42,299 nt of DNA from Verrucomicrobiota bacterium (lineage in GTDB: Bacteria > Verrucomicrobiota > Verrucomicrobiia > Limisphaerales > UBA9464): NCBI GenBank assembly GCA_947471985.1, contig CANIZL010000057.1:1-42299 (forward strand). Direction: 5' to 3'. Shown here piece after piece: positions 6,678 through 20,180 of the stretch (position 1 is the stretch's first letter; each line of letters starts with the position of its first letter). The notes beneath the pieces are model-generated. The model saw only the letters and a program-made list of their open reading frames with translations. It was not told where the DNA came from and ran no database searches. The translations under genes and the position numbers were made by a program.

Positions 6678-7256
6678 ATGACGCCTGCGCTCGCCGTCTC
6701 CGCCCGCGAACGTCAGAATCGGTACGGCCATCCCGGACTGGTGGTGTGGTTCACGGGATTGAGCGGAGCGGGTAAGACCACGTTGTCCACCCGTCTGGAG
6801 CGTCGCCTCTTCGATAAAGGTCGGCTTGCCTACGCCCTGGATGGCGACGCGGTGCGAGCGGGCCTGTGTCGCGACCTGGGATTCTCCGCCCGCGATCGCC
6901 GGGAAAATGTCCGCCGGGCGGGCGAGGTGGCCGGGCTTCTGGCAGATGCTGGATTCATCGTTTTGGCCGCTTTCATTTCACCGTTCCGCAGCGAACGCGA
7001 AGCCATCCGGTCCGCCCTCCCGCCGGGACGATTCGCCGAGGTGTTTGTGAACGCACCACTGGCCACTTGCGAAGGTCGCGATGTCAAAGGGCTCTATCAA
7101 CGAGCCCGGGCGCAGCAATTGCCCGAGTTCACCGGCATCAGTTCCCCGTACGAAGCTCCCCTGACGCCGGATCTGGAACTCCGAACCGACCAGGAAGGCA
7201 TCGAGGCCTGCCTCGAAAAACTCAACGCGTTAGTCGAAGACCGACTTAAACTCTGA
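6678..7256 (+). CDS. cysC: Adenylylsulfate kinase
   Basis: This 192-residue kinase phosphorylates adenosine 5'-phosphosulfate to PAPS. The P-loop GLSGAGKTT, the APS-binding segment DGDAVRAGLCRDLGFS, ISPFRSERE and the C-terminal FTGISSPYEAP motif are all present. Length matches stand-alone CysC. ATG 6678 was chosen because codons upstream (from 6591) encode a low-complexity segment with no family counterpart. No ATP sulfurylase or cysteine-synthesis gene is nearby. The gene stops 4 nt before a glycosyltransferase gene, so the PAPS may serve a sulfotransferase acting on the glycan, although no sulfotransferase is visible in the window. Confidence 0.92.
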   Translation: MTPALAVSARERQNRYGHPGLVVWFTGLSGAGKTTLSTRLERRLFDKGRLAYALDGDAVRAGLCRDLGFSARDRRENVRRAGEVAGLLADAGFIVLAAFISPFRSEREAIRSALPPGRFAEVFVNAPLATCEGRDVKGLYQRARAQQLPEFTGISSPYEAPLTPDLELRTDQEGIEACLEKLNALVEDRLKL

Positions 7257-7260
7257 AGCC

Positions 7261-8466
7261 ATGAAACCCGTCCTGCTGATCAGTGGTGCGCTGGCCAACA
7301 AGCCATTCAATGGAGGTAACGCCTGGAGCCGGCTGTGTTGGATCCTCGGGTTCCAACGATTGGGATTCCAAGTCTGCTTCGTCGAGCAGATCCGGGCGGA
7401 TTGTTGCGTCGACGCCCACGGCGCACCCGCTGATTTCCTCGCCTCCGCGAACGTGGCGTTTTTTCACTCCGTGACGGCGCACTTCGGCCTCGCCGATTCG
7501 GCGGCGTTGCTCTGCGATGACGGCCGGCAGATCGGGACGTCGCTGGACGAACTCATCGCCCAGGCCCGTCAGGCGGAGATGCTCTTCAATCTCAGCGGCC
7601 ACCTAATCCACCCGGAACTCAAGCCCGGCCCGGCGGGTCGCATCTATTACGATGACGATCCCGGATTCACCCAATTTTGGCACGCTGCCGGGGGCGATGG
7701 CGCGCGGTTGGGCGGACACGAATTCTTTTTCACCCTCGGCGCCAACATCGGCTCCGCCGCTTGCAGCATCCCGACGGGTGGCATCCACTGGCGATCCACG
7801 CGCCCCCCCGTGGCCCTGGAGCAATGGCCCAATTGCGCCGCCGGAGCCTTTGACCGTTTCACCACCGTGGCCAGCTGGCGGGGCGCTTTCGGCACCATTC
7901 AGCACGGTGGCCGAACGTTTGGACAAAAGGCCCACGAGTTCCGCAAATTCATCACCCTGCCCCGCCGCACGGAACGAGCCTTTGAAATCGCCCTGCAAAT
8001 CCATCCCGGCGACCAACGGGACCTGGATGCGCTCCACGCGGCAAACTGGCGGATTGCGGATCCAAACCGCACGTGCGGAACCCCGGATGCCTTCCGCGCT
8101 TATGTCCAGGCCTCCAGCGCCGAGTTCTCTGTCGCTCAGGGAATCTACGTCGACACCCACAGCGGTTGGTTCAGCGATCGGACCGTCCGCTACCTGGCCT
8201 CGGGAAAACCCGTTCTGGTCCAGGATACAGGTTTCAGTCAGCACCTGCCCACCGGTGAAGGACTGTTAACCTTCCGCACCCTGGAGGAAGCAATCCACGG
8301 CGTGGAGCAATTGACGCTGGACTATCCGCGCCACGCGCAGGCAGCGCGGCGGATCGCCGAGGAACACTTCGCCGCCGACCACGTGCTGCGCCGACTGGCG
8401 GCGGATATCGGTTGGAAACTGCCAGCAATGCCACCGTCCACCCCTCGTTCACGAACCTCGCCATGA
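7261..8466 (+). CDS. Glycosyltransferase-like protein, first of tandem pair
   Basis: This 401-residue cytosolic protein has GT-B glycosyltransferase character. The N-terminal strand and Gly-rich loop (LISGALANKPFNGGNAW) resemble a Rossmann acceptor domain. The C-terminal half has SGWFSDRTVRYLASGKPV followed by QDTGFSQHLPTGEGLL, matching the donor-binding half of GT4-type enzymes. Other landmarks are YDDDPGFTQFW and a conserved IHPGD. It shares these landmarks in the same order with the next gene. The stop TGA overlaps the next ATG (ATGA at 8463-8466), so the two are translationally coupled. Donor and acceptor are unknown. Confidence 0.7.
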   Translation: MKPVLLISGALANKPFNGGNAWSRLCWILGFQRLGFQVCFVEQIRADCCVDAHGAPADFLASANVAFFHSVTAHFGLADSAALLCDDGRQIGTSLDELIAQARQAEMLFNLSGHLIHPELKPGPAGRIYYDDDPGFTQFWHAAGGDGARLGGHEFFFTLGANIGSAACSIPTGGIHWRSTRPPVALEQWPNCAAGAFDRFTTVASWRGAFGTIQHGGRTFGQKAHEFRKFITLPRRTERAFEIALQIHPGDQRDLDALHAANWRIADPNRTCGTPDAFRAYVQASSAEFSVAQGIYVDTHSGWFSDRTVRYLASGKPVLVQDTGFSQHLPTGEGLLTFRTLEEAIHGVEQLTLDYPRHAQAARRIAEEHFAADHVLRRLAADIGWKLPAMPPSTPRSRTSP

Positions 8467-17549: not shown

Positions 17550-18035
17550 TCAGTCCCGGAAGTTGGTAAAACTGAGTGCGGTGGGAAACTCCTCGTCCCG
17601 CAGCGCCTGCATGACGGTTTGCAGATCGTCCCGGTTCTTCCCCGTGACCCGGAGTTCATCGCCCTGAATGGCGGCGGTCACCTTCACACCCAGGCCGCGG
17701 ATGAACCCGCTAATTTCCTTGGCTACTGCGCCTTCGATTCCCTGCTTGATCTTGATCACCTGCCGCGCGTGGCCGAGCGGCGAGAGCTCGGCCTCGCCCT
17801 GATCCACATTCTTCAGGGAGATGCCCCGCTTGCTCAAACGGCCCACCACGATCTCCACCAGCGTCTTGATCCGGAAGGCGTCAGTGGCTTTGAGCTTGAT
17901 CTCATTTTTCTCGAGCACGATCTCGGCGCCCGCTCCTTTGAGATCAAAGCGGTTCAGCAATTCCTTCTGCGCCTGATGGACGGCGTTCTCGACTTCCATC
18001 GAATTCACCTTGGACACAACGTCGAAACTTGGCAT
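17550..18035 (-). CDS. yajQ: YajQ-family nucleotide-binding protein
   Basis: This 161-residue protein is full length for the family. It begins at the conserved MPSFDVVSKVNSMEV and includes NRFDLKG, VGRLSKRGI and the C-terminal RDDLQTVMQALRDEEFP. Family members bind nucleotides, and some (Xanthomonas, Pseudomonas) bind cyclic di-GMP and alter transcription. The cytosolic role here is unknown. Start 18035 was chosen from the conserved N-terminus; a frame extending to 18134 adds only Gly/Arg-rich codons. It is divergent from the JetD-like gene across 125 nt. Confidence 0.93.
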   Translation of the reverse strand: MPSFDVVSKVNSMEVENAVHQAQKELLNRFDLKGAGAEIVLEKNEIKLKATDAFRIKTLVEIVVGRLSKRGISLKNVDQGEAELSPLGHARQVIKIKQGIEGAVAKEISGFIRGLGVKVTAAIQGDELRVTGKNRDDLQTVMQALRDEEFPTALSFTNFRD

Positions 18036-18044
18036 GCCGCTAGG

Positions 18045-18082
18045 AAAGCGGATGAAAGCGGTGTTTTGAAGCCAAAAAGCGG
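18045..18082. promoter_or_regulatory. Phased AAAGCGG direct repeats
   Basis: Three copies of AAAGCGG start at 18045, 18055 and 18076, in the yajQ/JetD-like divergent intergenic region. The spacings of 10 and 21 bp equal one and two helical turns, as in many operator arrays. No known regulator is assigned. Confidence 0.3.
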
Positions 18083-18160
18083 TAAAAACCCGGCGCCCGC
18101 CCGCCCCGCCCCCACTTCCTCCGTGCCCCACCACGAACCATCGACGACCCTTTCGACGCG

Positions 18161-19267
18161 ATGAATCTCCTGCAGGTACCGATTGCGGTCGAACTCTTCC
18201 GCCAGTGGCGCACGGCCCGCGGCGAACGGGAGACCGCCGCCCGCCGGCCGTTTTCGCGCCGCTGGGAAGAGCTGCTCGAGGCGACGGGGATCGATTCTGC
18301 CAGCGACCGCCGCGACGCGGAACACGATGCCCGGGAACTGGCGACGGCGGGTTGGATTACGCTGAAGTCCGTTCCCCTCCGCCCGCAACTGCTCGAACGC
18401 ATCGCGATCCCGCTGGAACAGGAAACCGGCTGGTGCCGGGCGTTTGGCTATGTCGCCCCCACGGATGACACCGCTCGGCTCCTGCGGGAATTCGCCTGGG
18501 AACCCGCCCTCGCTTTTCTCACCACTGCCCGGGTGACTTTGCCGCTGGCCGATTTGCAGGCCTTGAATGCCTGGCTGGCCCGCCCTGCCCCCGCAATCGT
18601 GCCCGTGCCGATCAAGGAACGGTCGCTGGAAATTTTTGGCGACGAGAAGCGGCTCGATGGCTTGCTCAACTCCAGTTTGTTTGATGCGGGCCGACTGACC
18701 ACCGCGGCGCTGGGCTGCTTTCTGGCGTCCGAACCCCTGGGCTGGAAGCGGGGGCCGGCCACCGCCGTCGGGCAACCCGTGCTGATCCTGGAAAATGCGG
18801 CCACCTGGCACAGCTACGACCAATGGAACCAGGTTCACGGGCATTTCAGCGCAGTGGTCTACGGCGGCGGAAACCGGTTTCGGGATTCCGTGACCTTCCT
18901 TTCGGAAATCTTCCGCGAACTCGGCGGGCCGCGGCGGATCCTGTACTTCGGCGATCTGGATCCCGCCGGCCTGCGCATCCCGCGCTTGGCCAATCACCGG
19001 GCGGTGGCCGCAGGGCTGCCCCCGGTGGAACCACATCTCTGGAGTTACCGCCAGTTGTGGACCTTCCAGCCAACGCTTCCGCCACCCACCGAGGTGAACT
19101 CCGAGCCGATGACGCTGGAAGCCGCGGACCTGGCCTGGCTGGGAAAATTCGCGGAAACAGTTCACCCGTGGCTGAGCGCCGGCCGCCGACTGGCCCAGGA
19201 GCACATCGGCTGGACCCATCTGCAGCGGACCCACGCCACGCCGGCGGAAATCCTTCCGTCCGGCTAG
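18161..19267 (+). CDS. Stand-alone JetD-like (DUF2220) Toprim protein
   Basis: This 368-residue protein resembles the Wadjet defence nuclease subunit JetD. The N-terminal ~75 residues are helical and basic (FSRRWEELLE), suggesting a winged-helix DNA-binding part. The C-terminal half has the Toprim-like core: VLILENAATW with Glu211, then YFGDLDPAGLRI with Asp265 and Asp267, which would bind the catalytic metal as in topoisomerase VI A subunits. In Wadjet, JetD cleaves DNA recognised by the JetABC condensin. No jetA, jetB or jetC is in the window; the neighbours are yajQ and fabG, housekeeping genes. It may be a defence remnant, a solo nuclease, or part of a system with partners elsewhere. Confidence 0.75.
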   Translation: MNLLQVPIAVELFRQWRTARGERETAARRPFSRRWEELLEATGIDSASDRRDAEHDARELATAGWITLKSVPLRPQLLERIAIPLEQETGWCRAFGYVAPTDDTARLLREFAWEPALAFLTTARVTLPLADLQALNAWLARPAPAIVPVPIKERSLEIFGDEKRLDGLLNSSLFDAGRLTTAALGCFLASEPLGWKRGPATAVGQPVLILENAATWHSYDQWNQVHGHFSAVVYGGGNRFRDSVTFLSEIFRELGGPRRILYFGDLDPAGLRIPRLANHRAVAAGLPPVEPHLWSYRQLWTFQPTLPPPTEVNSEPMTLEAADLAWLGKFAETVHPWLSAGRRLAQEHIGWTHLQRTHATPAEILPSG

Positions 19268-19297: not shown

Positions 19298-20041
19298 CTA
19301 CATCACCATCCCACCGTCGACGGTCAGCACCTGACCCGTCACGTACCGGCCGCCCGGACCAGCGAGGTACAAGGCCGCGTGCGCGATGTCCTCCGCCTGA
19401 CCGAGATCGCCGAGCGGGATCTGCTTCAGGATCGCCTCCTTGACCTTGTCATCCAGCACCGCGGTCATGTCCGTGGCAATGAAACCGGGGGCGATGGCGT
19501 TGCAGGTGACCCCGCGGGAGCCGAATTCCTTGGCCACGCTCTTGGTGAAGCCAATCAGGCCCGCCTTGCTGGCCGCGTAGTTGGCCTGGCCGGCATTGCC
19601 GATGAGGCCGATGACGCTGGCGACATTGATAATGCGGCCCGTGCGCTGCTTGAGGAAGGAACGGGTAAACGCCTTGGTGAACAGGAAGGCGCCCCGGAGA
19701 TTCGTGTTGAGAACCACATCCCAATCGGCCTCGCTCATGCGCATGAGCAAACCGTCTCGGGTGACGCCAGCGTTGTTCACGAGCACGTCCACGCGGCCGG
19801 CCTCGGCCAAAATCTTTTCGGCGGCGGCAGTGACACTCGCGGAGTCGCTGACGTCGACCGCCAGCGCCCAGGCCCGGCGACCCAACGCGCGGACTTCCGC
19901 CGCCACTTTCTCGGAGTTCTCGACCGTGCGACTCACACACACGACATCGGCGCCCGCAGCCGCGAACTTGAGGGCGATCGCCCGACCGATTCCCCGGCCG
20001 GCGCCGGTAACAACCGCAATTTGATTGGCAATGGAATCCAT
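19298..20041 (-). CDS. fabG: 3-oxoacyl-[acyl-carrier-protein] reductase
   Basis: This 247-residue short-chain dehydrogenase has the features expected of FabG, the NADPH-dependent reductase of fatty acid elongation. TGAGRGIGRAIA is the cofactor loop and NNAG is present. Ser in NVASVIG, YAASK and NxK-type residues form the catalytic set. PGFIATDM and the C-terminal GQVLTVDGGMVM are typical. Start 20041 was chosen because the family begins a few residues before VAVVTGAG and the 35 upstream codons look random. It lies downstream of a metallophosphoesterase gene and is convergent with the JetD-like gene. Other SDR substrates remain possible because the rest of the fab cluster is absent. Confidence 0.88.
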   Translation of the reverse strand: MDSIANQIAVVTGAGRGIGRAIALKFAAAGADVVCVSRTVENSEKVAAEVRALGRRAWALAVDVSDSASVTAAAEKILAEAGRVDVLVNNAGVTRDGLLMRMSEADWDVVLNTNLRGAFLFTKAFTRSFLKQRTGRIINVASVIGLIGNAGQANYAASKAGLIGFTKSVAKEFGSRGVTCNAIAPGFIATDMTAVLDDKVKEAILKQIPLGDLGQAEDIAHAALYLAGPGGRYVTGQVLTVDGGMVM

Positions 20042-20180
20042 GAAGAAGTGATTAGGATTGCCCGGAGTCGGACTGTCAAAACCATCCGACGGAGCTGCCG
20101 GTACCAAAAAACGGGCGACCCAGGCCGGTGGAAGCCGAGGCCCCATCCGATTCGAGCCATGCCTGCCGCTGTCTCCAGCC

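What the first reader, a model, noticed from the sequence alone, without database searches (positions are those of the whole stretch)
18161..19267. Solo JetD/DUF2220 Toprim protein without JetABC
The C-terminal half carries the JetD-type Toprim residues (Glu211 in LILENAATW, Asp265/Asp267 in GDLDPAG) and the N-terminal part looks DNA-binding. In Wadjet systems this subunit is the nuclease and is encoded with three condensin-like genes. Here it is alone between yajQ and fabG. A solo form implies either a new activity or a system split across the genome.
Basis: partly seen in the sequence, partly recalled or inferred. Interest (0 to 1): 0.6.

Follow-up and report, generated by a model that had tools for sequence, protein, structure and literature searches.

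The report
Wadjet nuclease gene split from operon
The gene encodes the DNA-cutting part of a known bacterial anti-plasmid machine (Wadjet); in this genome it lies away from the machine's other three genes, which are present elsewhere, and it appears to be built by joining the front of one Wadjet subtype to the cutting part of another.

Summary
ORF 18161-19267 (368 aa) is a full-length JetD with the Toprim acids E211, D265 and D267. It stands alone between yajQ and fabG and is the only JetD_C match in the 6.38-Mb genome.

"Without JetABC" is wrong for the genome. A jetA-jetB-jetC operon lies on two other contigs that share an exact 38-bp overlap inside jetC. After jetC comes a beta-CASP gene, not jetD. 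In 320 genomes of the order, 27 carry this JetC type. In 25 of them a JetD match follows within 220 bp; one is cut by a contig end; only this genome has jetD elsewhere. The best reading is a Wadjet system whose nuclease gene has been relocated and works in trans, not a new solo activity.

The less expected result: JetD of this clade looks like a chimera. Residues 1-112 match type I JetD (7 of 7 sequences; 0 of 58 type III), and the Toprim part matches type III (58 of 58; 0 of 7). JetA, JetB and JetC are type I. So the clade is a mixed Wadjet: a type I motor with a type I-fronted, type III-cored nuclease. Function is inferred; nothing was assayed.

The parts
18161..19267 (+). jetD, 368 aa, nuclease subunit of a Wadjet (JetABCD/MksBEFG) system, encoded apart from jetABC
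   Evidence: Pfam JetD_C 40.1 bits; PADLOC JetD3 207.8 bits; 60 to 45% identical to JetD of the 21 jetABCD loci compared
18161..18496 (+). N-terminal winged-helix-like module (residues 1-112), type I JetD-like, probable JetABC-docking or DNA-binding part (role inferred)
   Evidence: HMM of this part hits 7 of 7 type I JetD and 0 of 58 type III; hhalign 97.7% to type I, 11% to type III; fold
18497..19264 (+). linker and Toprim nuclease module (residues 113-368), type III JetD-like
   Evidence: HMM hits 58 of 58 type III JetD and 0 of 7 type I (the type III set was found with the whole window protein); hhalign 100% to type III, 28% to type I; PADLOC JetD3 over residues 109-359
18791..18793 (+). 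E211, metal-binding acid; aligns with MksG E236
   Evidence: invariant; alignment to 8b7f (the residue numbering of MksG was matched by the 43-residue spacing of E236 and D279); the E236A effect is from PMC10123090 (passages)
18953..18961 (+). D265-L-D267, Toprim DxD; D265 aligns with MksG D279
   Evidence: invariant; the D279A effect is from PMC10123090 (passages)
19196..19201 (+). Q346-E347, invariant C-terminal QE
   Evidence: invariant in 34 of 34 rows and 41 of 41 rows
18036..18160 (.). 125-bp divergent intergenic region between yajQ and jetD; no recognisable jetC remnant
   Evidence: sequence; blastn-short and tblastn found no significant jetC match
17550..18035 (-). yajQ, flanking housekeeping gene, not part of the system
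19298..20146 (-). fabG (ORF as listed, true start probably inside), flanking housekeeping gene, not part of the system

Best explanation
This is the JetD nuclease of a Wadjet anti-plasmid system whose gene has moved away from its jetABC operon. SHOWN: a full-length JetD with intact catalytic residues; one jetABC operon of the subtype that elsewhere carries this JetD; no other JetD_C match in the genome; a junction after jetC where jetD is normally found but is absent. INFERRED: JetA, JetB and JetC form the loop-extruding SMC motor, load on circular DNA and reel it in. When extrusion of a small circle is complete, they open and activate the JetD dimer, whose Toprim acids E211, D265 and D267 hold the metal ion, and JetD cuts the DNA. 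JetD is made from its own transcription unit and joins the motor in trans, probably through its type I-like N-terminal module. The cutting module is of type III descent, so the protein is best read as a type I/type III chimera, a property of the whole clade and older than the relocation.
For: JetD identity: (MksG 8b7f ranks first, Z 11.1, and PaJetD 7til has Z 9.3; both rows have an overall rmsd near 20, as if the domains were arranged differently). jetABC in the genome: JetA 74% over 446 aa, JetC 71% and 87% in two pieces against the intact operon of G029; PADLOC types JetA1, JetB1, JetC1; the contigs overlap by 38 bp and give an unbroken 1132-aa JetC. One JetD_C match in the genome. Of 27 genomes with this JetC type in 320, 25 have a JetD match 7-220 bp after it. 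JetD divergence is about what its JetC divergence predicts: mean residual -2.8 points, within the -5.9 to +3.6 range of the 21 other rows (one of these is a duplicate record, one has a partial JetC). dN/dS is at most about 0.32 against the 8 intact-operon relatives compared, where dS is finite; dS is near saturation, so these are rough. JetB keeps the clade's N-terminal WPxF motif in 21 of 21 rows, whose role is unknown. Chimera.
Against: Pairing in trans is not tested; only co-occurrence and co-divergence support it. The JetD branch of this genome is rather long (0.69 against a median of 0.37 in the JetD tree; 0.26 against 0.25 in the JetC tree), although G071 and G141, which keep the operon, show similar ratios; the deep forks of both 20-row trees are open, so congruence cannot be shown. 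pN/pS of its pairs with the 8 intact-operon relatives is 0.40-0.52, slightly above the 0.27-0.47 of the pairs among those relatives that were computed. JetABC can live without JetD (MksBEF, PMC10586767, passages). The genome is a 180-contig assembly, so genomic distance is unknown; expression and a promoter for jetD were not shown.
Confidence: 0.73

Rival explanations
1. Relic: jetABC now works as a nuclease-free, MksBEF-like chromosome organiser, and jetD is a displaced leftover on its way to decay.
For: Three displaced JetDs of relatives are damaged: G004 lost about 100 N-terminal residues, L018 shows no match to the first 46 or so, L019 has an in-frame stop and shows no match to the first 48 or so. 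MksBEF of P. aeruginosa is thought to have arisen by loss of JetD (PMC10586767, passages). JetD branch somewhat long and pN/pS slightly raised.
Against: This copy is full length, has every invariant residue, codon-position GC like its neighbours (69.6, 51.4, 78.5%) and rough dN/dS well below 1.
Confidence: 0.14
2. Assembly or binning error: jetD really follows jetC.
For: The genome is in 180 contigs, and the contig break falls inside jetC.
Against: It would need three false joins: both sides of a 1.1-kb jetD inside a 42-kb contig, and the jetC to beta-CASP junction. jetD lies more than 18 kb from either contig end. No read data were available to check.
Confidence: 0.07
3. JetABC has exchanged effectors: the beta-CASP metallo-hydrolase gene 52 bp after jetC took JetD's place, and JetD is free for another role.
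For: Co-directional, 52 bp after the jetC stop; Pfam Beta-Casp 122.4 bits, RMMBL, Lactamase_B.
Against: No relative of this gene at E 1e-8 in 127 other loci, many with only a few kb of flank; the architecture is that of the beta-CASP/RMMBL RNase family (recalled); no sign of fusion or overlap.
Confidence: 0.04
4. Truly solo JetD with a new activity independent of any SMC motor.
For: Solo position; MksG and JetD cut DNA alone at high concentration (PMC10586767, PMC10123090, passages).
Against: jetABC of the matching subtype is in the genome; no conserved solo form or context was found in what was searched.
Confidence: 0.02

Closest known systems
Wadjet type I JetABCD / MksBEFG (E. coli GF4-3, P. 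aeruginosa PA14, C. glutamicum)
   Same: JetA, JetB and JetC of this genome score as JetA1, JetB1 and JetC1; the JetD N-terminal module is type I-like; Toprim acids match MksG E236 and D279.
   Different: jetD is not in the operon; its Toprim module is not of type I descent (0 of 7 family type I JetDs hit; PADLOC JetD1 profiles hit only weakly, best 26.7 bits over residues 205-275).
Wadjet type III JetD (JetD3), such as L184 (G255:C50) in the same order
   Same: Toprim module: JetD3 profile at 207.8 bits over residues 109-359; 55-57% identical over about residues 107-355 to the JetDs of G255:C50 and L020/G104:C186.
   Different: The N-terminal 110 residues do not match type III (0 of 58); no JetC3 match in the genome (without a positive control).
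Mixed jetABCD operons of the same order (G088, G029, G071 and others)
   Same: Same JetABC subtype and same chimeric JetD, 60-45% identical.
   Different: There jetD follows jetC within 220 bp; here it is on another contig.
Topoisomerase VI A / Spo11
   Same: Toprim fold (2zbk, 1d3y, 9o0g, Z 8.9-9.6 over 161-169 residues).
   Different: No invariant Tyr in residues 1-112 of the family alignment.

Membership tests
JetD (Wadjet nuclease) | JetD_C / DUF2220-type Toprim domain above the curated cut-off | tested here: met
   40.1 bits against 22; PADLOC JetD3 E 6.9e-62
JetD (Wadjet nuclease) | Toprim metal-binding acids | tested here: met
   E211, D265, D267 invariant in 34 sequences; E211 and D265 aligned with MksG E236 and D279
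JetD (Wadjet nuclease) | N-terminal winged-helix/CAP domain plus C-terminal Toprim | tested here: met
   model pLDDT 91.7; residues 1-99 align with winged-helix chains (Z up to 8.3) and about 192-368 with Toprim; MksG Z 11.1, PaJetD Z 9.3
JetD (Wadjet nuclease) | encoded next to jetABC | tested here: not met
   no significant jetA, jetB or jetC match in the 42-kb window
JetD (Wadjet nuclease) | jetABC of the matching subtype in the same genome | tested here: met
JetD (Wadjet nuclease) | JetABC-dependent cleavage of circular DNA | not testable with these tools
   needs biochemistry
Wadjet type I | JetA1, JetB1, JetC1 profiles | tested here: met
   47.9, 33.1 and 340.4 bits (JetC by its larger piece)
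Wadjet type I | JetD1 over the whole nuclease | tested here: not met
   N-terminal module met, Toprim module not (0 of 7; hhalign 28%); weak JetD1 profile hits to the Toprim region only
Wadjet type III | JetD3 over the whole nuclease | tested here: not met
   Toprim module met (58 of 58), N-terminal module not (0 of 58)
Wadjet type III | JetC3 in the genome | tested here: inconclusive
   no match, but that search had no positive control
Topoisomerase VI A / Spo11 | catalytic tyrosine in the CAP domain | tested here: not met
   no invariant Tyr in residues 1-112

The most novel reading that the evidence does not exclude
A Verrucomicrobiota-centred Wadjet lineage is mixed: a type I SMC motor drives a nuclease made by grafting a type I N-terminal module onto a type III Toprim core. 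Docking and cutting modules of JetD are then separable and exchangeable. In this genome the nuclease gene has also left the operon, so the machine is assembled from two loci and the nuclease may be regulated separately.
Probability: 0.6. Interest if true: 0.55.

Novelty: new variant of a known kind. Interest (0 to 1): 0.42.

Why it matters
How JetABC switches JetD on is not fully understood. A natural domain exchange whose N-terminal part follows the motor type while the cutting part does not points to the N-terminal module as the docking part and makes a direct swap experiment possible. The split locus is also a caution for operon-based defence finders: judged by genes side by side, this genome would show a type I Wadjet lacking JetD and a stray JetD3 (inference; no such tool was run on the genome).

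Tried and rejected
Conserved solo family: not supported. Of the four JetD matches in the order that first looked solo with 49% identity or more (G004, G282, G255:C50, G104:C186), G255:C50 is a type III Wadjet (JetA3 and JetC3 by profile, L184) and G104:C186 (L020 by its coordinates) has a 1466-aa ORF upstream in the same layout, not typed by profile. The other two lack N-terminal residues. Six weaker, C-terminal-only matches (31-36% identity: G278, G097:C29, G252, G268, G314, G147) were not examined.

Conserved yajQ-jetD-fabG context: rejected (0 of 29 loci; one 31% SDR in L134 is another gene).

jetC remnant upstream of jetD, or jetD remnant downstream of jetC: none found.

Mobile element near jetD: no transposase or integrase recognised by eye among the window ORFs listed; not searched with profiles, and the jetABC contigs were not examined for it.

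Foldseek alone ranked topoisomerase VI first and did not show JetD among the 50 rows printed; the second look put MksG and PaJetD at ranks 1 and 4. phmmer of the single sequence against the PDB found nothing; the profile found MksG (E 0.0065), PaJetD 7til (0.037) and JetD(E248A) 8q72 (0.31; E. coli by recall), all weak.

NCBIfam: no match. JetC/JetD tree congruence: not resolved. An apparent JetC-JetD fusion in L069 is probably a frameshift.

Literature: the listings showed no title or abstract start that described a split or type I/III mixed Wadjet (one search returned no paper). I read passages of PMC10586767, PMC10123090 and PMC12647877 only. Subscription papers are mostly not in the library.

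Full report
WHAT IS THERE. The ORF at 18161-19267 (+) encodes 368 aa. Pfam JetD_C matches at 40.1 bits against a cut-off of 22, and PADLOC JetD3 (PDLC00594) matches residues 109-359 at 207.8 bits. NCBIfam has no match. By profile alignment E211 and D265 fall on MksG E236 and D279 (a weak hit, E 0.0065), whose alanine mutants have drastically impaired nuclease activity (PMC10123090, passages). [quoted passage not shown] in the second-look comparison MksG ranks first (Z 11.1), followed by topoisomerase VI A (Z 9.6 and 9.3) and P. aeruginosa JetD (Z 9.3). The MksG and JetD rows have an overall rmsd near 20, as expected if the two domains are arranged differently. Foldseek itself did not show JetD among its 50 printed rows.

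THE GENOME HAS JETABC. Against the window's own genome (6,384,696 bases, 180 contigs, 96% complete), JetA of a relative (G029) matches C56:39944-41287 at 74%, and JetC matches C56:42121-42615 (87%) and C165:3007-5940 (71%). The end of C56 and the reversed start of C165 share an exact 38-bp overlap inside jetC; read across it, JetC is 1132 aa without a break. jetB lies between jetA and jetC. PADLOC types them JetA1 (47.9 bits), JetB1 (33.1) and JetC1 (340.4 for the larger JetC piece). Fifty-two bases after the jetC stop begins a beta-CASP metallo-hydrolase gene, not jetD. JetD_C rings once in the genome, at the window. JetC3 did not ring (no positive control).

IS THE SPLIT USUAL? In 25 a JetD match follows 7-220 bp downstream on the same strand. 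In G139 the contig ends inside jetC. The window's genome is the only one with its jetD elsewhere (counted). Two points on that count: G292 is included through a jetC fragment on C11 (its other JetC is 35% identical, with its own JetD); and one of the 25, G140, has a JetD frame with two TGA codons. Eight of these nine records bear Verrucomicrobiota names; L015 is labelled only 'bacterium'. The split thus looks like one event in one lineage and not a conserved architecture. yajQ rings in 47 of 50 family genomes; of the 29 relatives' loci fetched (about 1.5 kb each side, some less), none has this fabG or a jetD beside it. The flanks are ordinary chromosomal genes, and I recognised no transposase or integrase among the listed window ORFs (by eye).

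WHY I THINK THE TWO LOCI STILL WORK TOGETHER. (a) The JetABC subtype is the one that carries this JetD subtype elsewhere. (c) dN against 8 intact-operon relatives is 0.35-0.44 with dS 1.3 or more or saturated, so purifying selection has acted, at least over most of the history. (d) All invariant residues and the N-terminal domain are kept, whereas three displaced JetDs of relatives are damaged: G004 lacks the first 100 residues or so, L018 the first 46 or so, and L019 has an in-frame stop and lacks the first 48 or so. Against: the JetD branch is long (0.69, median 0.37), though G071 and G141, which keep the operon, have similar JetD-to-JetC ratios, and the deep forks of both trees (20 rows each; G087 and x14 left out) are open. 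pN/pS of this genome's pairs with the 8 relatives is 0.40-0.52, slightly above the 0.27-0.47 of the computed pairs among those relatives. Pairing in trans stays an inference.

A CHIMERIC NUCLEASE. The whole clade, not only this genome, shows a sharp change of affinity near residue 110. A profile of residues 1-112 from ten members hits 7 of 7 type I JetDs from the same family (E 8e-12 to 2.5e-4) and 0 of 58 type III JetDs at E<1e-3. A profile of residues 108-368 hits 58 of 58 type III and 0 of 7 type I. The type III set was collected with the whole window protein (59 loci, L077 gave no ORF), so its 58 of 58 on the Toprim side is expected by construction; the 0 of 58 on the N-terminal side is not. 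The 31 type III rows of alignment A2 were checked with PADLOC: all 41 members of A2, hybrids included, match JetD3; the other type III sequences were not typed one by one. Of 9 type I family loci held, two (L105, L107) gave no JetD ORF by my rule and were left out; G023 and G031, truncated, were not fetched. Profile-profile comparison (10 hybrid, 7 type I, 49 type III sequences) agrees: N-terminal module 97.7% to type I and 11% to type III; Toprim module 100% to type III and 28% to type I. Type III Wadjets exist in the same order (L184: JetA3 253.6 bits, JetC3 516.2 bits, JetD3 256.1 bits; the ORF in the JetB place matched no profile), and the JetD Toprim part of that locus and of L020 is 55-57% identical to the window's, so a local donor is plausible. 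Since JetA, JetB and JetC are type I, the N-terminal module follows the motor and the Toprim module does not. The simplest reading is that the N-terminal module fits JetD to the motor. Fast divergence of one module could imitate a graft, but would not explain positive similarity of each part to a different type. The direction and date of the exchange were not tested.

MECHANISM. From published work (PMC10586767, PMC12647877, passages): JetABC extrudes DNA as a dimer of dimers; on a small circle extrusion completes, and JetD, otherwise autoinhibited, is activated and cuts. JetD alone cuts only at artificially high concentration. I propose the same here, with JetD supplied from a second locus. 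A separate promoter in the 125-bp yajQ-jetD gap is possible but not shown.

NOVELTY. JetD, Wadjet and MksBEF without nuclease are known. The listings showed no description of a split Wadjet or of a type I/III mixed Wadjet; I read passages of three papers only. I rate it a new variant of a known kind.

Noticed in passing
G000:C165 (L087:1554-2948, - strand): A beta-CASP/RMMBL metallo-hydrolase gene starts 52 bp after the jetC stop, where jetD is expected; no relative of it at E 1e-8 in 127 other loci, many with short flanks.
   Followed up: partly
L180:7384-8436 (G140:C154): jetC is unbroken but the adjacent jetD frame holds two TGA codons: possible step towards a nuclease-free complex.
   Followed up: no
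L011:5881-6693 (G292:C11 by coordinates): A single ORF joins the start of jetA to the last 200 codons or so of jetC, followed by an unbroken jetD: an internal deletion of the motor genes that spared the nuclease gene.
   Followed up: partly
L184:548-8281 (G255:C50) and L020 (match 6979-7707): Type III Wadjet (L184, by profile) and a locus of the same layout (L020, not typed) in the same order, whose JetD Toprim part is 55-57% identical to the window's; likely relatives of the donor of that module.
   Followed up: partly
L069:5303-10789: A 1828-aa ORF spans a JetC-size region and JetD3; the middle reads like an out-of-frame stretch, so a frameshift is likelier than a fusion.
   Followed up: partly
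window 18005-19234 (- strand): A 409-aa antisense ORF lies opposite jetD with coding-like GC at third positions, probably an effect of high GC; no supporting evidence was sought.
   Followed up: no
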